This document shows, piece after piece, positions 1 to 12,693 of a stretch of 60,720 nt of DNA. The position numbers and the translations under genes were made by a program. The stretch's first letter is position 1. Each line of letters starts with the position of its first letter. This DNA is from Candidatus Omnitrophota bacterium (GTDB lineage: Bacteria; Ratteibacteria; UBA8468; B48-G9; JAFGKM01): assembly GCA_023819375.1 (NCBI GenBank), contig JAMWDI010000002.1, positions 121,176 through 181,895 of the forward strand, given 5' to 3'. The notes below the pieces were generated by a model. The model had not been told where the DNA came from. It saw nothing but the letters and a program-made list of their open reading frames with translations, and did no database searches.

Positions 1-1268
1 GTCGCAATCCCCTTTAAAACGGGTCATTTTTTCCAACTATATAGATGGTAAACTTGTTCAAAAATCTCTTGAAACTTGTCGCAATCCCCTTTAAAACGGG
101 TCATTTTTTCCAACACGGGAGCACGGTAGGGGGGAAGAAAAATGCTCCCAAAGGGTCGCAATCCCCTTTAAAACGGGTCATTTTTTCCAACTTTTGAAGG
201 GTTAGCAATTAACCACTCTCTCATTTTTTTTGTCGCAATCCCCTTTAAAACGGGTCATTTTTTCCAACTTATACAAGAGAAGAAGCAATAAAAGACGGTA
301 GAAAAATTGTCGCAATCCCCTTTAAAACGGGTCATTTTTTCCAACGATAGAGAAAAACCTTGTATTTATTCTGCTGATTATATCTCGTCGCAATCCCCTT
401 TAAAACGGGTCATTTTTTCCAACGAAATTTCTGAAAATCTCAATAAAGAGGAGAAAATTAAGTGTCGCAATCCCCTTTAAAACGGGTCATTTTTTCCAAC
501 GGGAATAAAGCCCTGTCCCACCCAGTTATAAATTGTTGAGGTCGCAATCCCCTTTAAAACGGGTCATTTTTTCCAACAGTTAAGTTTTTATATTCTCTTT
601 TTGATAAAAAATACTGCTTGTCGCAATCCCCTTTAAAACGGGTCATTTTTTCCAACGCAAGGTCTCTGGTAGAGGAGCAGCCAGAGTAGAGGGTCGCAAT
701 CCCCTTTAAAACGGGTCATTTTTTCCAACTCTGTAGAATTTTTAGAGCAATATCCTGAAGAAATACAAGTCGCAATCCCCTTTAAAACGGGTCATTTTTT
801 CCAACTTTAGGTAAAGGAGCACTACAGACAGCATTAGCATTAGAAGTCGCAATCCCCTTTAAAACGGGTCATTTTTTCCAACTTATTCTGGAAGCCCAAG
901 AATAAGGCTTGATGGAAACAGAGTCGCAATCCCCTTTAAAACGGGTCATTTTTTCCAACTTATCAATTCCTTATGCTGGATATTCTGCTGTTTTACGTTT
1001 GTCGCAATCCCCTTTAAAACGGGTCATTTTTTCCAACGGAATGGAAAGGATATGAAAAATTCGATGAAGCAATGGAGTCGCAATCCCCTTTAAAACGGGT
1101 CATTTTTTCCAACGTGGCTTCATGTCCTACAATGGACATGAAGCCTTGATTTAGAGTCGCAATCCCCTTTAAAACGGGTCATTTTTTCCAACAAGCAAAT
1201 AGAACTTATGAGGATGAAGAATGAAAAACTTGTCGCAATCCCCTTTAAAACGGGTCATTTTTTCCAAC
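1..1268 (-). CRISPR. CRISPR array, 17 repeats and 16 spacers, truncated at the window edge
   Basis: Seventeen apparently identical 37-bp repeats start at 1, 78, 155, 232, 309, 387, 464, 541, 620, 693, 769, 846, 923, 1001, 1077, 1156 and 1232. As printed each begins GTCGCAATCCCC and ends TTTTTTCCAAC. Spacers are 36-42 bp, mostly 40. On the minus strand the repeat ends GGATTGCGAC, the ATTG-type 3' end typical of type I/III repeats. The cas operon also points this way and the AT-rich leader lies at 1269-1450, so transcription is inferred leftward. The repeat can form only a weak hairpin (CCC against GGG around TTTAAA, with a mismatch). The array begins exactly at base 1, so the leader-distal end is outside the window. 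Confidence 0.99.
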
Positions 1269-1450
1269 CGCAATTTTTCAAAGACCAAGAATATCAATAA
1301 TTTTACTCCTATAAACCGCAAAACTCTATTTTTTAATCCCAAAATTAATATAACATATTTATACAATTTTGTCAAAATTATTGATAGTCAATAACTTAAA
1401 TCTTGCGCAAATCCCCCCTACTTTTTAATGAAAAACACATTTGCGCAAAA
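1269..1450 (-). promoter_or_regulatory. CRISPR leader with pre-crRNA promoter
   Basis: This 182-bp AT-rich segment lies between the cas2 stop and the first repeat. On the minus strand it has a perfect -35 TTGACA (1375-1370), a 17-bp spacer and a -10 TATATT (1352-1347, five of six consensus bases), which would start RNA near 1340, about 70 nt before the first repeat. A 10-bp inverted repeat, TTGCGCAAAT (1403-1412) and ATTTGCGCAA (1439-1448), lies between cas2 and the promoter; each arm contains the self-palindrome TTGCGCAA. No T-run follows it, so it does not look like an intrinsic terminator. It could bind a regulator or an adaptation factor. Confidence 0.75.
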
Positions 1451-1726
1451 TTAGATAATATAAAACTCTAAATCCCTTGTAACTTCCCCTATTCCAACAA
1501 TTTCAATTTTTTTCAAACAACCTTCACAAATTATATAAAAACGAATACTATCATTTTCTTTATCTATAATTTCTTTTATTTTTTCTTTAATTTTTTTTAA
1601 TTGTTCATCATTTATTAAACATTCAAAAACACTATATTGAACTCTTGTACCATAATTTTCCAAGATTTGGCTTACTTTATGTCTTTTTTTATCATCCTGA
1701 ATATCATAACTGATAACAACAAACAT
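1451..1726 (-). CDS. cas2: CRISPR-associated protein Cas2
   Basis: This 91-residue protein has the Cas2 ferredoxin-like fold pattern. The first strand MFVVISYDIQDDKKR carries the conserved aspartate at position 8, and YSVFECLI and FYIICEGCLKKIEIVG form the later strands. Cas2 bridges two Cas1 dimers in the complex that captures and integrates spacers. The gene starts two bases after the cas1 stop, with a weak AGGT site in front of ATG, and is the last gene of the cas operon before the leader. Length is normal for the family. Confidence 0.97.
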   Translation of the reverse strand: MFVVISYDIQDDKKRHKVSQILENYGTRVQYSVFECLINDEQLKKIKEKIKEIIDKENDSIRFYIICEGCLKKIEIVGIGEVTRDLEFYII

Positions 1727-1728
1727 TT

Positions 1729-2718
1729 TTACCTCATTTCATAAGGGATATACTCTTGTTCTTCAAGTATTGTTTTTTCAAATTTCCTTATCTGATACTG
1801 GATAAGTTTTCTATAATTCATAGTTTCTTCTTCATATGTTATCTCCGTTAAAATTCTTCTTTCATATTGAGTTAAAAATTCTTTAATTGCTTTTTCATTC
1901 AAACGAATTTTTTCTTCTTCATCTTCAACAAAATCATCTTCTTTTAGAATTTCTTTATTTATAATTTCAAGAACAAGTCGGTCAACTATAACATGTCTGA
2001 ATTCTTCCATTAAATCAAGTGCGAGTGCCGGTCTTCCATAATCAACAGTATGCAAAAATCCAAGATATGGGTCAAAACCAATGCCTTGTAAAATTGAAAA
2101 TACCTCACTTGTTAAAATTGAATATCCAAAACTTAAAAGAGAATTCACTGGGTCTTTAACGTTTCTCGGTGTTCTTTCTTTAAATTCAAAATTTTTAAGT
2201 ATCATATTTCCAAAACATTCAAAGTAAATTGCAGAACATCTTCCTTCAAGACCCATTACTGATGAGATAGAATTTTTTCTTTTTAGTTCTTCAAGATTTT
2301 TTTCAAGTTCTTCAATGTGATTGGAGAAATTTACTTCTGGATGGTTTCTTTGATATCTTAAAAGTAAAATTTTAGCATTGTTTATTTTCCCTTCAACAAA
2401 TTTTTTTGATATGTTCAACTTAAATTCTTCATCCTTATATTTCTCAAATTGCTTTATTCTTAAAAGAACATTTTTTGATTCAACTGGCTGAAGTTTTCCA
2501 ATAAATTTCCCATAAATTGTAAAGAAAGAAGTATCAATCCCTGAAGTTAATAGAAATTTCATTGCCTGGGTAGTTATCTGGATATTACCAAAAATAAAGA
2601 CCTTATCAACTTTAAATTCAGGAATTTCAAGAAGAACAACATCATCTTTTTCTATAACAAATCTCTTATCTTCCTTTTTTAATTTTGCACCCTGCTCTGT
2701 AATGTATAATGTAGCCAA
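1729..2718 (-). CDS. cas1: CRISPR-associated endonuclease Cas1
   Basis: This 329-residue integrase of spacer acquisition has the metal-binding residues in place: E158 in VMGLEGR, H223 in GFLHTVDYGRP and the acidic pair in LDLMEEFRH around 238-239. The N-terminal beta domain begins ATLYITEQGAKL, which fits the family start, so the TTG at 2718 is taken as the initiation codon. No clear Shine-Dalgarno site precedes it, and expression probably depends on coupling to the upstream gene, which ends 7 bases earlier. No reverse transcriptase is fused or adjacent. Confidence 0.97.
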   Translation of the reverse strand: MATLYITEQGAKLKKEDKRFVIEKDDVVLLEIPEFKVDKVFIFGNIQITTQAMKFLLTSGIDTSFFTIYGKFIGKLQPVESKNVLLRIKQFEKYKDEEFKLNISKKFVEGKINNAKILLLRYQRNHPEVNFSNHIEELEKNLEELKRKNSISSVMGLEGRCSAIYFECFGNMILKNFEFKERTPRNVKDPVNSLLSFGYSILTSEVFSILQGIGFDPYLGFLHTVDYGRPALALDLMEEFRHVIVDRLVLEIINKEILKEDDFVEDEEEKIRLNEKAIKEFLTQYERRILTEITYEEETMNYRKLIQYQIRKFEKTILEEQEYIPYEMR

Positions 2719-2725
2719 ATTTTAT

Positions 2726-4012
2726 TTAAATAAAATTTCTTGGAAGTTGTAAATATTCTATTTTAATTTTTGACCTATTACAACAATTTTCAATGAATTC
2801 CTTTACAAATTGTAAAATTTTTTTCCAGTCCTTCTCTGTAATTGGCGTATCACCATGGGCAAGTTTAGAATTGTTTCTTATCTGTAGAATATTTTTAAAA
2901 ATAGATTCTTTTTCTGCATATACTTTACCAAATTCATCATTCAATTCCAAAAGTAGTTTATAATCATCAACAAGGCCAATTTTTATTTTTCCTTCATTAT
3001 CTCTTTTATTTTCCCAGTAATCTTTATTTTTTACCTTATTTAAATCTAAATCTCCTGTTTCTATACCATAATTTTTTTTCAATCTAATTTGAGCAAATAA
3101 TTCTAAAGTCCTGTAAATTCTTGCACAGGCATTGTCATAAAAACCATTTTCTGCCTGCCTTTCTGCATTACATATTAAATCAAAGACCTTTTCATAACCA
3201 GTTGATTTTGTTTTACCAAGAATTTTTAATAGATAATCTCTGTAATTTGTTAAACTTTTTTCATCTTTTATAACATTAAATGCTTTTTCATATTCAAATA
3301 TATCCCATAAATAAAAACCTTCACAGAAATTTCTTTTTTCTCTTAGTTTTTTCTCAAGTTCACCATTTAATTCAATTTTAGTTAATACATCTTCAATAAT
3401 AATTTTTGCTGGATAATATAAAAAACGAAAAACAAAATTACCTGCGATTTTCAAAATATAGTCAATTCTGGCAAGGTTAAAGTTTTCACGAACAGGTATA
3501 CTTCCTTCTGATATTTTTATTATATTTTCTCTTTTACCTTTTACAAGAGAGGGACTAATATCAAAATTGAATGCACATAAAAGTGAAAGAACACTTGACA
3601 TTGTCTTTGTTCCACCTGTAAAATCAGCAATTACATTACCCATTTCTTTTGCTTTATCAATACAAATTTTTATTTTTTCATAAACTTCAGAAAAATCGTC
3701 AGGGTCATTTAATATAATCTTTTCATAATCACCTTCATATTCTGCCTGTTGGATTATAGAAGGAAATCTTTCTTCTTTCTGAATAGTCGCACCACAATCT
3801 GGGCATTTTATTTGTTTTTTTCTAATGCATGGTTTTTCGTTTATAATAGTTTTTTTATTTTCATCTTTTCCATCAACTGTTATATGACTTGCAATTTCCG
3901 GCTTTCCTCCTGAACATATAAAATAAATAAAATCTGGTTTATATCCTCTAATTGCTTCTACAACCGGCTCGTCTGATCCACCCACCGTAATTATAAGAAC
4001 TTTTTTATTCAT
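2726..4012 (-). CDS. CARF-HEPN ribonuclease, Csm6-like (TIGR02710/Cas02710 type)
   Basis: This 428-residue protein has an N-terminal Rossmann-like CARF domain. It starts VLIITVGGS and carries the ligand-binding motif ADFTGGTKTM (D130 to M138). The C-terminal domain is mostly helical and includes RIYRTLELFAQIRL and the HEPN catalytic motif RNNSKLAH (R379, H386). Such proteins bind cyclic oligoadenylate from Cas10 and cut RNA non-specifically. An insertion at about 62-73 holds C62, C70 and C73 (PCIRKK, then CPDCG), resembling half of a zinc ribbon; this is unusual for the CARF core. The gene lies 3 bases after cmr6 and 7 bases before cas1. The family is named from memory of its motifs; the HEPN call is firm. 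Confidence 0.88.
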   Translation of the reverse strand: MNKKVLIITVGGSDEPVVEAIRGYKPDFIYFICSGGKPEIASHITVDGKDENKKTIINEKPCIRKKQIKCPDCGATIQKEERFPSIIQQAEYEGDYEKIILNDPDDFSEVYEKIKICIDKAKEMGNVIADFTGGTKTMSSVLSLLCAFNFDISPSLVKGKRENIIKISEGSIPVRENFNLARIDYILKIAGNFVFRFLYYPAKIIIEDVLTKIELNGELEKKLREKRNFCEGFYLWDIFEYEKAFNVIKDEKSLTNYRDYLLKILGKTKSTGYEKVFDLICNAERQAENGFYDNACARIYRTLELFAQIRLKKNYGIETGDLDLNKVKNKDYWENKRDNEGKIKIGLVDDYKLLLELNDEFGKVYAEKESIFKNILQIRNNSKLAHGDTPITEKDWKKILQFVKEFIENCCNRSKIKIEYLQLPRNFI

Positions 4013-4015
4013 TTT

Positions 4016-4987
4016 TTATATTTCAAATATTCCATAACCCAATGAAGTTTTGGCTCCTATTCCTGTTTCCTTCAGTGCTTCTTTCAAAAGATATATGGCT
4101 TTTTCAATCAAATCTTTATCTTTGCCTATTAAATAAAATTGAAATTTTGTATTTTCAACTGTCAGAAATTTTATGGGTTTTGGATTTTGCCAGTCAGCGG
4201 GTGGTTTTTCCCCTGAATAATAATCAGGATAATGGACATTCATTATATCAATTTTTAAATTTATATTTTCTAAAGGATAAGCATCCATAAAAATTACTTT
4301 ACCTGCCTGTTCTTGAGTTCCAAAGATTTCAATTAAATCCTTAAAATTTATACCATCTACATTAAGTTTAATATCTTCTCCCTTTTCAAGAGCATCTGAT
4401 ACCAATTTTAAAGACTTTTCAAAATCTTCCGTGCCTTTATTTGCTTTTTCTTCAGCAAATTTTAAAACAGCCCAGTGCCTTGTAATACCTTTTACAGCAC
4501 TTCCAGGAATATAAGGAATTCCATAAATATGATGAAGTGTCATAGAAGTCTCCTGAGGATGGGAAGCACCGAGCCCAATTACAAGACGCCATGGACAAAG
4601 GGCAGTGAGGGGTTTTACATTAAAACCACAATTTCTTAAATCTTCTAAAAATCTCTCATTTCTTTTTTTAACAGAATCAAAAAAGTTTTGCCACTTCATC
4701 TTTAAGTTTTCAAATTCCTTTATAACAAGCTGAAGATACTTATCTTTATTTTCCTTATCTTCACCTTCATCTAAGCCCTCAGGAATAAATTTGCTGAAAA
4801 GTAAGTTTATATTTTTCTCAAAATCATTTTTGCATTCATACCACCAATCAATTTTTTCTTCTCTATTTCTTTTTCTATTAAACTCCCATTTACTTTTTTT
4901 AAAAATTTCCATAAATAAAATTTCACAGGTATTCGCTGGATTGTAAAACCTATAGTCAATTCTTTGTCTTTCAATTTTTATTCTCAT
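4016..4987 (-). CDS. cmr6: type III-B RAMP protein Cmr6
   Basis: This 323-residue RAMP-superfamily protein caps the Cmr backbone near the 3' end of the crRNA. Recognisable features are LVIGLGASHPQETSMTLHHI, YIPGSAVKGITRHW, the FGTQEQAGKVIFMDAYP block, the VHYPDYYSGEKPPADWQNP segment typical of Cmr6, and the C-terminal glycine-rich loop TGIGAKTSLGYGIFEI. The ATG overlaps the cmr5 stop by 4 bases (ATGA), indicating translational coupling. The lysine-rich stretch before the core RAMP motifs (about residues 25-110) is poorly conserved. Confidence 0.95.
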   Translation of the reverse strand: MRIKIERQRIDYRFYNPANTCEILFMEIFKKSKWEFNRKRNREEKIDWWYECKNDFEKNINLLFSKFIPEGLDEGEDKENKDKYLQLVIKEFENLKMKWQNFFDSVKKRNERFLEDLRNCGFNVKPLTALCPWRLVIGLGASHPQETSMTLHHIYGIPYIPGSAVKGITRHWAVLKFAEEKANKGTEDFEKSLKLVSDALEKGEDIKLNVDGINFKDLIEIFGTQEQAGKVIFMDAYPLENINLKIDIMNVHYPDYYSGEKPPADWQNPKPIKFLTVENTKFQFYLIGKDKDLIEKAIYLLKEALKETGIGAKTSLGYGIFEI

Positions 4988-5472
4988 TCTTCCCCTCCTT
5001 CTCCTTCAATCATTCCTTCAGCAAACTTCTTAAGCCAGTTTAAAAAAGCAAGAACTTCTTCTGTTACATACCTGTAGTTATATGAGTCAAGGGAAATAAC
5101 CCATTCAATGAGTTCATTTTGATCTTCAGGCATTCTTATTCTGGCGGTTGAATCACTTTTTAGGTAATCAGTTAGTTGCTTATAGATTAAATCGTAAGCA
5201 TTTTTAGGATTACCTTCAGAACCCGGCTTCTTCTCATCTTTTCCCTTCTTCCTTTTAGCACATATAAATGCAAGAGTCTGACCTAAACCGTTTGAGAGAA
5301 TCATTGAAGGAATTTTTTTTACATACGATTTATATTTGTCATCTTCATAGAACTCTCCATTTATTTCTATCTTTTGCAAAATGCTTTTGCCTTCTAACGC
5401 ACATTTATAAGCAAACTCAGCTCTACCCTTTTCAAGTTTTGTAATTAATGTTAATGTTTCTTTTTCAGACAT
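4984..5472 (-). CDS. cmr5: type III-B small subunit Cmr5
   Basis: This 162-residue, mostly helical small subunit packs along the Cmr4 filament and helps hold the target RNA. The family signature is AEFAYKCAL near the N-terminus and KKIPSMILSNGLGQTLAFICAK in the middle, followed by a helix containing LNWLKKFAEG. A charged loop (KRKKGKDEKKPGSEG) interrupts the fold. It overlaps cmr4 by 8 bases and cmr6 by 4. Confidence 0.94.
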   Translation of the reverse strand: MSEKETLTLITKLEKGRAEFAYKCALEGKSILQKIEINGEFYEDDKYKSYVKKIPSMILSNGLGQTLAFICAKRKKGKDEKKPGSEGNPKNAYDLIYKQLTDYLKSDSTARIRMPEDQNELIEWVISLDSYNYRYVTEEVLAFLNWLKKFAEGMIEGEGGEE

Positions 5473-6565
5473 GGTTATCCTCCTTTTGTTTTAAAATATT
5501 TACCCTTACAAACCCTTTCCCTATGGTTTGATTTCCACCTATCTGAATTACTGGTGGAAGACCTTTTTCAAAAAATTCTGAAACAAGTTTTGCCTCTTTA
5601 TCTGGGGAATCTGCTTTAAAAATTCCTTTCTGGTCTTCATTTTCTACCCTTGGAAAGGTAAACATAACAAGTGAATAGAGAATAGTATCCTGAGGAAGAT
5701 ACTCCTCTGTCCATAAGCCACCTGTCTTTTTATCAACCGTCCCCGTTATATTATCAATTCTTGTCCTTGTAATAACCTCAGTTGATGTTTTAACAAATTG
5801 CTTAAAATCATCATCACTTAAAATTACAAGGTCTTTTCTTAATTTCTCTTTCCAAAAATTATAGGTGTTAGTATTGGGTAAAATGTTATCAGCAAGCCAT
5901 TCTGCTATATTAGATGTTGTCTCATTTTCACTTACTTCAAATGTAAATTCCTCAAGTACAACTTTAGATGAAATGGAGATATTTGTTTGTCCTGGCAAAC
6001 TCTTTTCTAACTGACCAAAATTGTTGAAACTAAAGCCACTTATTCCAGCAAGTTCAAGGTCTTTTTTAAATCTCTCCAGAACCATTGGACAGGTAATCCA
6101 AGCAAATACACCTTTTAATGACTTTACAGGAAATAGCAAAATCCTTGCATCAGTTATGCTCATAGCACCAGCATGGGCTTCCTCGCCTTCTGGACCAAAA
6201 ACAAGAGCGATCGCTTCATCAAATTTAATTAGTTCATTTTTATCTTTGTCTGTTTTTATTTCTTCTTTTTCATTACCTTTTTCATCTTTAACTTTTATTT
6301 TCCATGGATTAGATATATCTGGAAAACGTCCTACCAGTTTTTTCACATTATCACATTCAATTAACTTACTCTTCTTATTTTCAAACACCTTATAATTTTC
6401 AAAAGCTTCCCTTAGACACCCCTTTAGACCTGAACTTTCAATCTTTGGGAAATCTGTATATCGTTCTCTCTGAATGGGTAGATCAACTATGCCAACTTCA
6501 CTTCCACTACCTGCATGAACAGGTGTTTCTGCTATTAAAAATAATACCCTTTTTTCTTTAAACAT
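5465..6565 (-). CDS. cmr4: type III-B backbone RAMP nuclease Cmr4
   Basis: This 366-residue protein is the repeated backbone subunit that cuts target RNA at 6-nt intervals. The N-terminus TPVHAGSGSEVGIVDLPIQRE carries D28, which aligns by motif with the catalytic aspartate of Cmr4 proteins. SSGLKGCLREAF and the glycine-rich GNQTIGKGFVRV near the C-terminus are RAMP motifs. A strong site, AAGGAGGT, lies in front of ATG, fitting the need for several copies per complex. It starts 2 bases after the CARF-RelE gene. Confidence 0.95.
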   Translation of the reverse strand: MFKEKRVLFLIAETPVHAGSGSEVGIVDLPIQRERYTDFPKIESSGLKGCLREAFENYKVFENKKSKLIECDNVKKLVGRFPDISNPWKIKVKDEKGNEKEEIKTDKDKNELIKFDEAIALVFGPEGEEAHAGAMSITDARILLFPVKSLKGVFAWITCPMVLERFKKDLELAGISGFSFNNFGQLEKSLPGQTNISISSKVVLEEFTFEVSENETTSNIAEWLADNILPNTNTYNFWKEKLRKDLVILSDDDFKQFVKTSTEVITRTRIDNITGTVDKKTGGLWTEEYLPQDTILYSLVMFTFPRVENEDQKGIFKADSPDKEAKLVSEFFEKGLPPVIQIGGNQTIGKGFVRVNILKQKEDNHV

Positions 6566-6567
6566 CT

Positions 6568-7752
6568 CTATACCTCCTTTTTGATTTTATAAAATTCGTA
6601 TGTTTCAAGATTTTTAATTTTTTCTCTCTGTTTTTCAAAAGTTTCTACATATTCACTCTCTGCGTTATGAACTTCACTGCCAATTGCTATTAGTCCTACG
6701 TAAACTGATATCTCAACTGATCCATAGACTGTATTATACCGCTCATCCTTATATAAAATTCTTACCTGTAAATCTTCTTCTTTATGTTTAAAGGTCTTAA
6801 AACCTTCTGGTAAATTAATATTTTTTAAAGAATGGTTAAGATCCGGGTGAGCAGGATTTTCTTTTAATCTTCTTTTAAGTTCACATACTGATTTTTCAAA
6901 TATTCTCTTTCTTTCCGGATTTCTTTCAAGATAGTTTTTGACCTCTTCAGATAGGTAGAAAAATTCAAAATTTGATTTATATCTTTCCCATAAAGCAACT
7001 CCCAATGGATTAAGATTATAAAGATTATCTGCAAATTCAAGTAATGAAGTTATATCCGGGTCTATTTTTAATTTTTCATCAATTTCTTTTATTTGGTTTT
7101 TTTCTAATTCAAAAAAGAATTTCTCATTGTTTTCAAAAATTGACCATTTTATATCAATTGGAATAATTGGTATTTTTATCAATGCATCTGTCTCTTCAAA
7201 GATATAATAAATTGGGCATCTATTAATCTGGGCAAGAATTGTAAGATAAGGTATTGTTGCTTTATATCCACCTGTAATGTTAATGATTACATTATCCCAG
7301 TATCCGCCAGCAATATTATAGATTTCCCTAATTAGATTTGACATACCGGCATTGAATTCTTTTCTATCCCAGATTTGAAGACCACTGATTACCTTTAATT
7401 GAATATTCAGGCTCTTAATTGTATCGGGTAAAATATCTTTTATTATCTCTCCAACAAGTCTGCTTACAATTGTATCAGAACATAAAAAATAAATTTCAAA
7501 ATCCTCTTTCAATTCTTCCTGGAGTTTTAAAAGACTTTTTATTTCTGCGGATACGTCTTTCTTGTCATATTCACATTGTATCCATCTTCTTACTGCTTTT
7601 TCTACACCCTCTCTTCTTGCTTTTTCATTATCCCAATCTTTTTCTCTTTTTTCTTTAAGGACATCATAATAATTTTTAATTGTTTTGTCATCGTTTTTCT
7701 CAAAATAATTTTCAAAAATTGACGCTCCTACCATTGTAATTATCTTTTTCAT
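6568..7752 (-). CDS. CARF-RelE fusion, candidate cyclic-oligoadenylate-activated mRNA interferase (Cami1-like)
   Basis: Residues 1-200 look like a CARF domain of the APE2256/Csx1 type: ITMVGASIFEN at the start, EIYFLCSDT and the motif NITGGYKATIPYL (N158 to K164). Residues 280-390 do not look like HEPN. They follow the RelE/ParE toxin pattern: a helix with ELKRRLKENP, then GFKTFKH, QVRILYKDE, and the paired strands VEISVYVGLIAIG followed by SEVHN. This pairing is known in Cami1, a CARF-RelE protein reported to cleave ribosome-bound mRNA. The gene sits between cmr3 (4-bp overlap) and cmr4 (2-bp gap), so it is expressed with the complex. The CARF call is firm; the RelE call is by pattern only. 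Confidence 0.75.
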   Translation of the reverse strand: MKKIITMVGASIFENYFEKNDDKTIKNYYDVLKEKREKDWDNEKARREGVEKAVRRWIQCEYDKKDVSAEIKSLLKLQEELKEDFEIYFLCSDTIVSRLVGEIIKDILPDTIKSLNIQLKVISGLQIWDRKEFNAGMSNLIREIYNIAGGYWDNVIINITGGYKATIPYLTILAQINRCPIYYIFEETDALIKIPIIPIDIKWSIFENNEKFFFELEKNQIKEIDEKLKIDPDITSLLEFADNLYNLNPLGVALWERYKSNFEFFYLSEEVKNYLERNPERKRIFEKSVCELKRRLKENPAHPDLNHSLKNINLPEGFKTFKHKEEDLQVRILYKDERYNTVYGSVEISVYVGLIAIGSEVHNAESEYVETFEKQREKIKNLETYEFYKIKKEV

Positions 7753-8837
7753 GGCACCCCTATAAAACTCAGTCCAAAACCTTCTTCTGGGTTTATATCT
7801 GAGATATTTTTAAAATGAAAAACTTTCTTAATCTCCCCAAGCGAACCACTTAAGACTTTAAAATAATAGACGCTTCCATCTGGCACTGCTTTATACATTG
7901 ATTTTGGTTCATTTTTTGCCATATCCCAACCAGCAATTCTTATAAATTTACCTATAGCACAAGCAATAAGTTTTAACTTAATTTCATCTTTCTCACCTTC
8001 CAAAGTTTCTGCATTTATCCATTCGGGCAACCATCCTTTTTTAAATATAGCAGGGGTTGCAAGATAGATTTTAAAAATTCCATCTTTAAGTTCAAAATTC
8101 ATATTTTCTAAATCTTCTAAAGGATTATTATTTATTTTCTCAAATTTCACCGTCTTCCCTTCCCCACCAAGAGCAAAGAGACCTTTTTCTGGCATATTTT
8201 CTATTCCATCAAACTTTACTAAAAAACAATAATCTTTCTTTAATCTTATCATTGGGATTCTATAAAGATAACCTTCCTTTGAAGAAAGGGTTATGTCCTC
8301 CCTCGCAATACCTATTTTCGGTTCTGTTGTATAAAATCCCGATATAAAAGAATATTCTCTTTTTTGCCCTTGCAGGTATTCCTTAAAAGTGATACTATCT
8401 AGATACCCTTCAGCAGATTCCACCTGTTCCCTCTTTTGATAAATAAGTATATCTTCAAGGGGATATTCAGCATAAAATATTTCTGGTTTTTTAACTTTGC
8501 TGATTTGAAAAAGTTTATCCTTTTTCTTATTTTCTTTCTTCATTACCAAATCCAATGGAGCAGGGAAATAAGTTTTGCCATTTTCAGAATTAAAGATAAG
8601 TGGACCTATAATTTTCATTGTTCCTTTTTTATCCGGTGTTCCAATATCCTTCTTGTATTTTCCACTTTTAAATTCTCTTAAACTGCCTCTCTCAAAGATT
8701 AAAAATGTTCTCAATGCTCCATAAATTGTAGAAGGATAGGGTGGAAAAATACTATCTGCCCAAGTTTCAGAGCCCATACTGAAAGGTCTTCCAGAGCGAA
8801 AAAATAAAGTATCGTTTGGATAAATCTTTATCCACAT
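7749..8837 (-). CDS. cmr3: type III-B RAMP protein Cmr3
   Basis: This 362-residue RAMP protein pairs with Cas10 and grips the 5' tag of the crRNA. The N-terminal signature is PNDTLFFRSGRPFSMGSETWADSIFPPYPSTIYGALRT, where the FRSGRPF and PPxPST blocks are diagnostic of Cmr3. KIIGPLIF, TYFPAPLDLV and the C-terminal glycine loop PEEGFGLSFIGVP also fit. The TGA of this gene overlaps the ATG of the CARF-RelE gene. Confidence 0.95.
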   Translation of the reverse strand: MWIKIYPNDTLFFRSGRPFSMGSETWADSIFPPYPSTIYGALRTFLIFERGSLREFKSGKYKKDIGTPDKKGTMKIIGPLIFNSENGKTYFPAPLDLVMKKENKKKDKLFQISKVKKPEIFYAEYPLEDILIYQKREQVESAEGYLDSITFKEYLQGQKREYSFISGFYTTEPKIGIAREDITLSSKEGYLYRIPMIRLKKDYCFLVKFDGIENMPEKGLFALGGEGKTVKFEKINNNPLEDLENMNFELKDGIFKIYLATPAIFKKGWLPEWINAETLEGEKDEIKLKLIACAIGKFIRIAGWDMAKNEPKSMYKAVPDGSVYYFKVLSGSLGEIKKVFHFKNISDINPEEGFGLSFIGVP

Positions 8838-8839
8838 CT

Positions 8840-11599
8840 TTAATCCTCCCCTTTATGAATGAAAGTTGCAATAGTGCAAAAGTTAGTGAAATAATCTAAA
8901 TTACCACCTATGTTCCAGAATAAATTGCTCATGTGATTAAATAGATTTTCTATAAACTCTTTTTTATCTTTATCTGATATCTTTTTTTCTTTTGGAGAGT
9001 TATAGGATCTATCAAGAAGTCTTAATATTTCCTTGTTAATAATATCTGCTGTTCCTATAAAATAGCCTTCTTTGTCTTTTAAATGCGCAAATTCTAAGGC
9101 AAATTTTTGAATAAATCCCTTTGCTATATAACCTTCTTCATTATTTTCATCAAAAGATTTTACTATTTCCTTTAATGTCTTAATTGTATCTCTATCATCA
9201 TATTTCCACTGTGCAGTTACAGTTCTCTCCTCACCAGAACGTTTCATCAAACATATGGCAAATCTATTTTTGCCTTCACCTTTTGCAAGTTTTTCCATCT
9301 CAAAAACCTTTCTAATAACAATTTGAAGAGGAGTTTTATAATGGGCAATCACAACTCCCATAGAGGCAGTTGCTTCTGGACCCATTGTAAGAATAAATCT
9401 TCCATCTTTTTCAACAAACCCTGTTTGATTTTTAATATCAATTTCAATTTCTCCATTTTCAACTTTTATCTGACCTGAAAAAGCCCATCTAAGTTTTTGC
9501 ATAACATCAAATAAATCTTTAAGGTTAACAAAAGCCAAAACATCATCACCTCCTGCATAAATTAGTTTTCCGAAATGTTCTTCTTCAATTATTTTTCTCA
9601 CAAATTCAAGGGCATAGTTTCTTAAGGCTGTTGAAATAGAAGTATGGATAGCAGGAGTTAGAAGTTTTTTGCATGATATGTTCGTTAAATCTTTTTTAAA
9701 ATTATCAGGTAGATTTTGCCACGCTTTGGAATTATAGGCATTTTCAATACGAGGTAAAAGTTCACCTGAAAGCCATTTACCCATATTGTCGGCATCAAGA
9801 TGAAGAATGGCATAATAAGGATTTGGTTTTCCTATTTTATCAGTAAGTTTTTTTAATCTTTCTTTTATCTCTTTTAATTTGGTTTCACCTAATTGAATTT
9901 CCAGTTCTTTGTTAATAAGTTTTTCAGTTAAATTTTCTTCATAGAACCATTGACCTTCTAAATTCTCTTTTATATTAAACTTTGGAAGCGGTTTACTTGT
10001 TGGAAATTTCTCCTGAAGCAATTTTTCCTGGTAGATAATAAACTCATCTTTTGCGATGTTTATTGCTTTATCTTTAAAATCGGCACAGGCAATTTCTGCT
10101 GTGGATGGGAAAGTTAAATTTTTAAATACCTGCGATACTTCTTTTTCCAGATATATTTCAAATGTTCTTTTAATAAAGCAAATCGCACAAAGACCTTCAC
10201 CATCAGCAATATATTTTAATAAAACTTTTGGGTTGTCAGTTAAATCAATAGCATATGGATTAAATCTTAAAAATTTATTTTTATTAGCCGTTTCTCTAAA
10301 AAAGATTACATCTCTTTCTCCACAAACTGAGCATTTTCTACCTTTTTCTTCCATCTGTACAAATTCTCTTAAATTTTTCCTTGCTCCCATTGATTTTTCA
10401 AGAGTTGAATATAGAATTTCATAAAGAAGACCTATGTTGGGTGAAAATTGACTATTTTTAGTTGCAAATTCCCATAAATCCTGATAATTCTTTAAAACTT
10501 CCTCTTCAAAGTATTCTTTTAGATCATCAAAGGAAATGTCTCTATTGTTAATTTTCCATGGAACGGCAACCCAGTATACTTCTGGAAATTCAGAAAGTTG
10601 AGAGTTGATTTTACTATTGGTTCTTCCCGAAGGATTTATACTTAGTTCTTGAAATATCAAATCTTTAGTGTTATTAATTGCGTTTCTTATACTGTTTTGC
10701 ATTTCTTTAAAAAGATTGGTGATTTCTTTCCCATCAGTTATAGGTAATAAAGCTACAAATCTATTGGGTATTGTAGGAAGTTGAATTGAATTTTCATCAA
10801 AATCTGTTATGTCAATTCCATTCTTCTTAAGCCACCAATCCATAAGTGGTTGTTTATAAAGGTCTGGATAAATAATGTTTGTTGGTCCGTATTTATCAAT
10901 GATTATTTCCATTGATTTAAAAGTGAGAAATGAAAGGATGAAGCTTCCCATGTAAAAATCCTGGGTTTTTCGTGCCTGAGAGATAAAGCTCTGCACAGGT
11001 CCTATAGTAAATAGAAACAGACAATTGTTTTGATGAAGAACTTTATTTTCTTCATCCCAATAGGCGTGGAGTGCAGAGGCGATTTTCAGATGTTCCCAGA
11101 TTGAGTGGTCCGGGACCCTGGTATCAGCAGGAAGAATGGGTAGATATTTAATCCAAGATTTGTCATTTAAATTTTGAAATATTTTATCCTGAAGATTTCT
11201 CCAGAGATAGAAAAATTTTTTCTTATCATCCAGGTTTGAAATTTCCTTACCAATTTTTTCATATACCTCACCAATGGCTTTAAAGATTTCTTCTTTTATA
11301 TAATTTTCATTACCAATAGCTTTAAAGATCTCTTCCTTTTCACAATCTTCATTTGGTAATTTTCCTTTGCAGAGGGGGTGTCTTACCTCGGTAAAATTTT
11401 GAGTAACTTTACCTTTTTTTGGCAATAAACTTCTTTCCATGCATGAGGCAATGTGGTCTGGCCCCTCAGTTTCTTCAACTCCTGAAATATCAAGTTTTTG
11501 AGCATAATTTTTTGCTCTCTCAATATGGGTAGAAATATCAAAACATTTATCAATTGGGTCGTGTAAAAATGCTTTTAATTTTTCAGTGAAGTCATTCAT
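8840..11599 (-). CDS. cmr2: type III-B large subunit Cas10 (Cmr2) with HD and GGDD motifs
   Basis: This 919-residue signature subunit has AFLHDPIDK at the N-terminus, giving the HD pair (H13, D14) of the DNase domain. A four-cysteine zinc site spans roughly 420-475 (CSVCGE, then LCAICF). The palm/cyclase motif YAGGDDVLAF (GGDD at 683-686) is intact, so conversion of ATP to cyclic oligoadenylate upon target RNA binding is expected. The C-terminal helical domain ends with FTNFCTIATFIHKGED. The gene overlaps cmr1 by 4 bases. With both active sites intact, the two CARF proteins in the operon are plausible receivers of its signal. Confidence 0.97.
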   Translation of the reverse strand: MNDFTEKLKAFLHDPIDKCFDISTHIERAKNYAQKLDISGVEETEGPDHIASCMERSLLPKKGKVTQNFTEVRHPLCKGKLPNEDCEKEEIFKAIGNENYIKEEIFKAIGEVYEKIGKEISNLDDKKKFFYLWRNLQDKIFQNLNDKSWIKYLPILPADTRVPDHSIWEHLKIASALHAYWDEENKVLHQNNCLFLFTIGPVQSFISQARKTQDFYMGSFILSFLTFKSMEIIIDKYGPTNIIYPDLYKQPLMDWWLKKNGIDITDFDENSIQLPTIPNRFVALLPITDGKEITNLFKEMQNSIRNAINNTKDLIFQELSINPSGRTNSKINSQLSEFPEVYWVAVPWKINNRDISFDDLKEYFEEEVLKNYQDLWEFATKNSQFSPNIGLLYEILYSTLEKSMGARKNLREFVQMEEKGRKCSVCGERDVIFFRETANKNKFLRFNPYAIDLTDNPKVLLKYIADGEGLCAICFIKRTFEIYLEKEVSQVFKNLTFPSTAEIACADFKDKAINIAKDEFIIYQEKLLQEKFPTSKPLPKFNIKENLEGQWFYEENLTEKLINKELEIQLGETKLKEIKERLKKLTDKIGKPNPYYAILHLDADNMGKWLSGELLPRIENAYNSKAWQNLPDNFKKDLTNISCKKLLTPAIHTSISTALRNYALEFVRKIIEEEHFGKLIYAGGDDVLAFVNLKDLFDVMQKLRWAFSGQIKVENGEIEIDIKNQTGFVEKDGRFILTMGPEATASMGVVIAHYKTPLQIVIRKVFEMEKLAKGEGKNRFAICLMKRSGEERTVTAQWKYDDRDTIKTLKEIVKSFDENNEEGYIAKGFIQKFALEFAHLKDKEGYFIGTADIINKEILRLLDRSYNSPKEKKISDKDKKEFIENLFNHMSNLFWNIGGNLDYFTNFCTIATFIHKGED

Positions 11600-12693
11600 A
11601 GGATCAACTCCTCTCTTTTAGGTAAACCATTTAAAAAATTGTTTACAAGTTTTTCAGTAAATTTTTTAACATTACTCTTATTCCATTTATTATCTCTTTT
11701 TTCTTCCATTCCAATATAATTTACTCCTCCAGGCGATAATTTTACTATCACTGGAAAATATAAATTGTTTGATGATTTAATAACCTTAAAAATCAAAAAA
11801 GAAGCCCACCTTTCTGAAAGTCGCTCCTTATTATTATCGTAAGGAACCATTCTGGTAGAAAATCCTGAATGCATTATAGGCATACCAAAGGTTGCTGTTT
11901 CAAAAATTTGGGATTTGTTATTATTTCTAAACTTCCTATATTCTTCCCCTAAAAAATTTAATGCTTCTTTCCAGTCATTTTTTGGATCGAAGATTAAAAT
12001 TCTTGCATCCTTAAGATTTGTATATTCTAATTGTGCATAACTTGTATTAGTCCCGCAGATTTTTTTAATTTCGGTTAGATTCCTTTCCAAAAACTTTTTC
12101 AATTGAGAAGTATCTTTTGCATCACAAATAAAATCAAGATTTATATCATTATTTTCATCTACCTGTGTTACCTCAATATTTCCGCCACCTCTTCTTGCTC
12201 TTGTGCCAAATCCACCAAGGTATATAGCAAGCCAAAGGGATGCACATGCTTTTTTAAAAGCTTCTTCATTCATAAAGGTTAAAGTTAATTCAAATTCATA
12301 ACCATTTTTTATATAGGATCTTTCTCTATTAGGCAACACAGTGGAATATAATAAATATCCAATGCCTGCATTTTCTCCAGCAAGTGAGTTGGTATTTCTG
12401 TCAAAACACCAGTGTAAGTTATAATCCACCTTTAAATTATTACCTATATTTAGTGAGGATATTCCTTTAATTTTCAGTTGCACTTTACTTTTCCCTTCCT
12501 CTTCTCCTGTTCCACCAAAAATTTCTGCTTCTTCCCTTTTCAATTTTTCAATGTTATCTTCTGCCTTAATTGCTCTCCACCACCATCGCATCATACCTTT
12601 GAATTCTGAAGGTCGTAATTCAGGAGTTTCTCCATCTGCACCAGCCATAAACATAGGTGTGATTAATTTACATTTTAATTTTAAGATTTTCAT
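11596..12693 (-). CDS. cmr1: type III-B RAMP protein Cmr1
   Basis: This 365-residue RAMP protein sits at the crRNA 3' end of the Cmr complex. The N-terminus LITPMFMAGADGETPELRPSEFKGMMRWWWRA is the classical Cmr1 signature, followed by AEIFGGTGE and GYLLYST. YLGGFGTRARRGGG is the glycine-rich loop. It is the first gene of the cas operon. A good ribosome-binding site, AAAAGGAG, lies 7 bases before the ATG, and a promoter candidate lies about 110 bases upstream. Confidence 0.95.
   Translation of the reverse strand: MKILKLKCKLITPMFMAGADGETPELRPSEFKGMMRWWWRAIKAEDNIEKLKREEAEIFGGTGEEEGKSKVQLKIKGISSLNIGNNLKVDYNLHWCFDRNTNSLAGENAGIGYLLYSTVLPNRERSYIKNGYEFELTLTFMNEEAFKKACASLWLAIYLGGFGTRARRGGGNIEVTQVDENNDINLDFICDAKDTSQLKKFLERNLTEIKKICGTNTSYAQLEYTNLKDARILIFDPKNDWKEALNFLGEEYRKFRNNNKSQIFETATFGMPIMHSGFSTRMVPYDNNKERLSERWASFLIFKVIKSSNNLYFPVIVKLSPGGVNYIGMEEKRDNKWNKSNVKKFTEKLVNNFLNGLPKREELIL

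What the first reader, a model, noticed from the sequence alone, without database searches (positions are those of the whole stretch)
6568..7752. CARF-RelE effector embedded between cmr3 and cmr4
The C-terminal 110 residues follow the RelE/ParE toxin pattern rather than HEPN, fused to a CARF domain with NITGGYK. This is the Cami1 architecture (CARF-RelE, reported to cut mRNA on ribosomes). Most type III-B loci carry HEPN or nuclease effectors at the edges; here the toxin gene is inside the complex-encoding genes with 4-bp and 2-bp junctions, so effector and complex should be made in fixed ratio. The flanking helix at 230-290 may dock on the ribosome, by analogy only.
Basis: partly seen in the sequence, partly recalled or inferred. 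Interest (0 to 1): 0.8.

Follow-up and report, generated by a model that had tools for sequence, protein, structure and literature searches.

The report
CRISPR toxin gene with swappable end
The gene is a new member of Cami1, a known family of CRISPR alarm proteins that switch on a messenger-RNA-cutting toxin; its position inside the CRISPR gene row is normal for its relatives, but related bacteria have swapped the toxin half of the gene while keeping the sensor half and the neighbouring genes.

Summary
A 394-codon gene on the minus strand (7752 to 6568) overlaps cmr3 by 4 bp, sits 2 bp before cmr4, and encodes CARF (1-200), a winged helix-turn-helix (201-259) and a RelE-fold domain (260-394). 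The full-length model's best PDB match is Cami1 (Z 22.5 over 353 residues). The C-terminal domain modelled alone retrieves Cami1's RelE domain, then RelE, HigB, ParE and YoeB. PADLOC already lists the family (CARF7-CARF_RelE). Cami1 is a known cA4-activated, ribosome-dependent mRNase, so this is a new member of a known kind.

The positional interpretation needs correcting. In a clade-wide scan, 37 of 49 relatives, from many phyla, also sit between cmr3 and cmr4. A 'fixed ratio' is not supported: cmr4 has the operon's strongest ribosome-binding site and this gene the weakest of the cmr block.

The notable new result is modular exchange. The window and its closest relative (L025) are about 80-88% identical in DNA across cmr3, CARF and cmr4, but the wHTH-RelE half is replaced by another RelE-type module. 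Two RelE modules alternate across the operon tree (monophyly rejected, p = 0.0003). A third module in the same slot has PD-(D/E)XK-like motifs.

The parts
6568..7752 (-). CARF-wHTH-RelE effector gene (Cami1 type), 394 aa
7153..7752 (-). CARF sensor domain, residues 1-200; S11 (codon 7720-7722) and K164 (codon 7261-7263) correspond to ring-nuclease residues S12/K169 of Sis0811
   Evidence: PF09651; fold match to Sis0811 and Cami1; S11 near-invariant and K164 invariant in the clade alignment
6976..7152 (-). winged helix-turn-helix linker domain, residues 201-259
   Evidence: DSSP pattern; profile match to Cami1 runs through it; CARF-wHTH proteins Sis0811/SSO1393 aligned to residue ~262
6571..6975 (-). 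RelE-fold toxin domain, residues 260-394; conserved H307 (6832-6834), R331 (6760-6762), Y334, H362 (6667-6669)
   Evidence: model and fold search; conservation across two module types
7749..7752 (-). 4-bp ATGA overlap of cmr3 stop and effector start
6573..6577 (-). GGAGG ribosome-binding site of cmr4 inside the last codons of the effector gene
7749..8837 (-). cmr3
5465..6565 (-). cmr4
4984..5472 (-). cmr5
4016..4987 (-). cmr6
8840..11599 (-). cas10/cmr2 with HD (residue 13) and GGDD (residue 683) motifs, so predicted to make cyclic oligoadenylate
11596..12693 (-). cmr1
2726..4012 (-). second effector, CARF1-HEPN (Csx1/TIGR02710)
1729..2718 (-). cas1
1451..1726 (-). cas2
1..1283 (.). CRISPR array, about 37-nt repeats at about 77-nt spacing (array continues to the window edge)

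Best explanation
The gene encodes a Cami1-type ancillary effector of the type III-B system. Target RNA recognition by the Cmr complex makes Cas10 synthesise cyclic oligoadenylate, most likely cA4. The ligand binds the CARF dimer, the wHTH relays the change, and the RelE domain cuts mRNA in the ribosomal A site, stopping growth; the CARF then probably degrades cA4 and resets the protein. Csx1 (2726-4012) works in parallel. Shown here: gene, operon, CARF-wHTH-RelE fold, conserved candidate catalytic residues, cyclase motif in Cas10. Inferred from Cami1: cA4 as ligand, dimer, ribosome dependence, stalk binding, ring-nuclease reset. In evolution the gene behaves as a fixed CARF sensor in a fixed operon slot with an exchangeable C-terminal effector module.
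For: Full-length fold: Cami1 8phj/8phb is the top hit (Foldseek 6.3e-16; Z 22.5, 353 residues aligned, 2..391). Profile match to Cami1 CARF+wHTH, E 1e-30. RelE domain alone: all of the top 12 rows of the structural re-alignment are RelE/ParE-superfamily chains, led by Cami1. H307, R331, Y334 and H362 are conserved across two otherwise dissimilar modules. S11 and K164 match the ring-nuclease residues named in the Sis0811 S12/K169 entries, and Cami1 is reported to have ring nuclease activity (PMC12409355). Cas10 has GGDD and HD. Literature: Cami1 is dimeric, cA4-activated, cuts mRNA at the A site, is in 135 of 1113 type III loci, and co-occurs with Csx1 54 times (PMC11229360). Module exchange.
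Against: Sequence identity to the Cami1 RelE domain is only 12-14%, and no sequence profile finds RelE in this module. A related CARF7-RelE protein from Synechocystis (SyCsm6) showed ring nuclease but no RNase activity on purified RNA, which fits a ribosome-dependent enzyme but does not prove one (PMC9676260). Ligand, oligomer and ribosome binding are untested.
Confidence: 0.84

Rival explanations
1. The protein acts mainly as a ring nuclease (off-switch for Csx1), and the RelE domain is weak, silent or structural.
For: CARF7 family includes Crn1 ring nucleases (PMC12409355); S11/K164 conserved; SyCsm6 has ring nuclease but no detectable RNase activity (PMC9676260); the operon also carries Csx1.
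Against: RelE-domain residues H307, R331, Y334, H362 stay conserved across the clade; the C-terminus is replaced by other toxin-like modules, not lost, in relatives, which points to selection for an effector output.
Confidence: 0.09
2. The RelE-fold domain is ParE-like and hits another target (for example gyrase) or free RNA instead of ribosome-bound mRNA.
For: ParE1 and YoeB/ParE chains score as well as RelE in the fold search (Z 6.7 and 6.4 against 6.8, ties); ParE toxins share the fold but lack the RNase residues (PMC11980606).
Against: Best single match is the Cami1 RelE domain in ribosome-bound form (Z 8.6); the conserved H/R/Y/H set looks like an RNase site (inference); both wHTH and CARF match Cami1.
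Confidence: 0.05
3. The apparent exchange of the C-terminal module between the window and L025 is an assembly chimera and not evolution.
For: L025 comes from a low-coverage metagenome bin (contig name gives cov 1.57) and its gene carries a frameshift.
Against: The same A/B discordance recurs in other pairs (L019/L035, L020/L024, L023/L031), and the A modules are not one clade on the cmr3+cmr4 tree (p-AU 0.0003).
Confidence: 0.05

Closest known systems
Cami1 (CARF-RelE mRNA interferase; PDB 8phb, 8phj)
   Same: CARF-wHTH-RelE order, full-length fold, type III context, candidate ring-nuclease site
   Different: RelE domain only 12-14% identical; the window's RelE carries a GSEVHNAESEY motif and a longer strand-loop-strand stretch than the type B modules; the genomic position of the solved Cami1 gene was not checked
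CARF7--CARF_RelE family (PADLOC PDLC01936)
   Same: full-length match, 3.7e-123
   Different: the model mixes proteins with several C-termini; it also scores PD-(D/E)XK-like variants
CARF-wHTH ring nucleases Sis0811 and relative SSO1393
   Same: CARF and wHTH fold (Z about 21), Ser and Lys positions
   Different: no RelE effector domain
SyCsm6 (Sll7062), Synechocystis CARF7-RelE
   Same: domain architecture, co-encoded with a Csx1
   Different: lies as the last gene of a type III-D effector operon (PMC9676260)

Membership tests
Cami1 (CARF-RelE effector) | N-terminal CARF domain | tested here: met
   PF09651 8.1e-30; fold
Cami1 (CARF-RelE effector) | wHTH between CARF and effector | tested here: met
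Cami1 (CARF-RelE effector) | C-terminal RelE-family domain | tested here: met
   fold search with the domain alone; sequence profiles alone do not reach it
Cami1 (CARF-RelE effector) | catalytic RelE residues | tested here: inconclusive
   H307, R331, Y334, H362 conserved but not superposed on Cami1 coordinates
Cami1 (CARF-RelE effector) | encoded with a type III system whose Cas10 can make cOA | tested here: met
Cami1 (CARF-RelE effector) | dimer, cA4 activation, A-site mRNA cleavage, ribosomal stalk binding | not testable with these tools
   needs biochemistry
RelE/ParE superfamily (BECR fold) | RelE-type alpha/beta fold | tested here: met
   model order beta-alpha-alpha-beta-beta-beta-alpha-beta; top rows RelE, HigB, ParE, YoeB
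Crn1-type ring nuclease | conserved Ser and Lys of the cOA-cleaving site | tested here: met
   S11, K164 in the alignment; activity itself not testable
Crn1-type ring nuclease | stand-alone protein without effector domain | tested here: not met
   135-residue RelE domain present

The most novel reading that the evidence does not exclude
The cmr3-cmr4 position is a dedicated effector slot in which a resident CARF7 sensor stays with the operon while recombination at the CARF/wHTH boundary and at the cmr4 start exchanges the effector module (two dissimilar RelE modules and a PD-(D/E)XK-like one), so phages meet a changing output behind a constant alarm signal.
Probability: 0.7. Interest if true: 0.55.

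Novelty: new member of a known kind. Interest (0 to 1): 0.4.

Why it matters
It extends Cami1-type translation-blocking effectors to a type III-B clade shared by many phyla, several of them thermophiles, and gives closely related natural operons that differ mainly in the effector half. Those pairs are a ready-made experiment on whether a CARF sensor can drive foreign toxin domains, and on whether type III effectors diversify by cassette exchange under phage pressure.

Tried and rejected
Sequence search of the C-terminus against the PDB gave only weak IS608-type transposase hits (E 0.004), which the fold search did not support. Foldseek alone on the C-terminal model gave no hit below 0.001; only the structural re-alignment recovered RelE. 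PADLOC's 'RelE' name was not taken as proof, since PD-(D/E)XK-like relatives score on the same model. Searched the window's genome for a second, silent copy of the other module (a switchable cassette): none of type B at E up to 1, although that query had no positive control there. No relative was found in viral contigs, and only one partial, 42% match in plasmids. The CARF classification paper (PMC7498327) is not held, and the Cami1 paper (Science 2023) did not turn up in the searches, so prior mention of the cmr3-cmr4 slot or of module exchange cannot be excluded; no paper searched here described it.

Full report
Observation. The gene is real, on the minus strand at 7752-6568, 394 aa. Gene order on that strand: cmr1, cas10, cmr3, this gene, cmr4, cmr5, cmr6, Csx1-like CARF-HEPN, cas1, cas2, CRISPR array. 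It overlaps cmr3 by 4 bp and lies 2 bp before cmr4. Cas10 keeps an HD motif and GGDD, so cyclic oligoadenylate production is expected.

What it is. CARF: PF09651 8.1e-30. The PADLOC model CARF7--CARF_RelE matches over the full length (3.7e-123), but that model also scores relatives with an unrelated C-terminus, so RelE needed its own test. AlphaFold2 with 25 sequences gave pLDDT 89.1 and pTM 0.84. The best PDB match is Cami1, both by Foldseek (6.3e-16) and by structural alignment (Z 22.5, rmsd 5.7 over 353 residues, 2..391). The C-terminal 135 residues modelled alone (pLDDT 90.8) gave no Foldseek hit below 0.001, but the re-alignment of Foldseek's candidates is headed by the RelE domain of Cami1 (Z 8.6, 114 residues), then 70S-bound RelE (6.8), HigB1 (6.7), ParE1 (6.7), RelE1 (6.5), YoeB/ParE (6.4). 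One unrelated fold reaches 5.6; the others fall to 3.4 or less. The fold is RelE; the sequence is very divergent.

How it most likely works. [quoted passage not shown] H307, R331, Y334 and H362 are conserved in both RelE module types and are the candidate active site; S11 and K164 are the candidate ring-nuclease residues. Ligand, dimer and ribosome steps are inference.

Position. The embedded position is not peculiar to this genome. A scan of 84,980 species genomes (the search patterns pick this clade) returned 49 relatives, 37 with the order cmr3-CARF7-cmr4; four have other resolvable neighbours, the rest end at contig edges or lack cmr hits. In contrast, among 18 resolvable cmr3 neighbourhoods of relatives, cmr4 follows cmr3 directly in 13, cmr1 in three, and CARF7 only in the window and one genome of the same order. 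Two other relatives in the phylum (L002/L042, L003) carry a more distant CARF-RelE at the operon edge with cmr3 and cmr4 adjacent. The fixed-ratio idea fails on initiation signals: the effector has the weakest ribosome-binding site of the cmr block and cmr4 the strongest, placed inside the effector's last codons.

Module exchange. Relatives in this slot carry at least three C-termini: type A (window, L019-L023, L026), type B (L024, L025, L027-L038, L041, L047, L048, L053; consensus KNGHxVYDDGDNPxRIFYxE...) and type C (longer proteins, about 430-535 aa when complete; E...D-I-D...ExK; weak hits to PDDEXK_11, NOV_C and DUF4143). Four further loci (L039, L044, L045, L055) have a divergent C-terminus that aligns with the RelE types. 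The window and L025 are 83-92% identical at DNA level in cmr3, mostly 77-93% in CARF and 95% at the cmr4 start, but 22-60% from the CARF/wHTH boundary to the cmr4 start. Summed by segment: cmr3 end 88%, CARF 83%, wHTH 55%, RelE 54%, cmr4 80%; the more distant type A relative L019 is about 70% in every segment. L019/L035, L020/L024 and L023/L031 show the same break in the RelE part. For all five type A members with a cmr4 neighbour and an intact CARF (window, L019-L022), the nearest CARF and cmr4 relative is a type B member. On a cmr3+cmr4 tree type A needs six changes and its monophyly is rejected (p-AU 0.0003). The likeliest reading is recombination that replaces wHTH+effector behind a resident CARF. 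The direction cannot be told, and no second module copy was found in this genome.

Literature and novelty. CARF fusions to RelE, HEPN and restriction-type nucleases have been known since at least 2014 (PMC4012209), and combinatorial diversity of sensors and effectors is recognised (PMC12669027). Cami1 is common. The gene is therefore a new member of a known kind. I found no description of the fixed cmr3-cmr4 slot with exchangeable modules in the papers searched, but two key papers could not be read.

Noticed in passing
L043:4949-6241, L046, L050, L052, L056-L059, L061-L063: In the cmr3-cmr4 slot of other genomes (L046: between cmr3 and cas1) the CARF7 protein ends in a PD-(D/E)XK-like domain (E, DID, ExK) instead of RelE; PADLOC still labels them CARF_RelE.
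   Followed up: partly
L022:11197-12030: A 277-aa CARF7 (PF09651) protein without an evident effector domain, ring-nuclease-like in size, sits between the CARF-RelE gene and cmr4.
   Followed up: partly
L037:7565-8318: A nucleotidyltransferase-HEPN pair (MntA/HepT-like) is inserted between the CARF-RelE gene and cmr4, so the slot may be an insertion hot spot.
   Followed up: partly
window 2726-4012: Second effector in the same operon: CARF1-HEPN (Csx1-like) with an RNNSKLAH motif; its ribosome-binding site is very weak (-3.3 kcal/mol).
   Followed up: no
L011:1093-3309 and L008: A congener (G004) and another genome carry long CARF7 proteins (about 740-800 aa) that look like CARF-HD proteins rather than CARF-RelE.
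   Followed up: no
L023, L025, L040, L047: CARF-RelE genes broken by frameshifts or early stops in these assemblies; could be assembly errors or real inactivation of a toxic effector.
   Followed up: no
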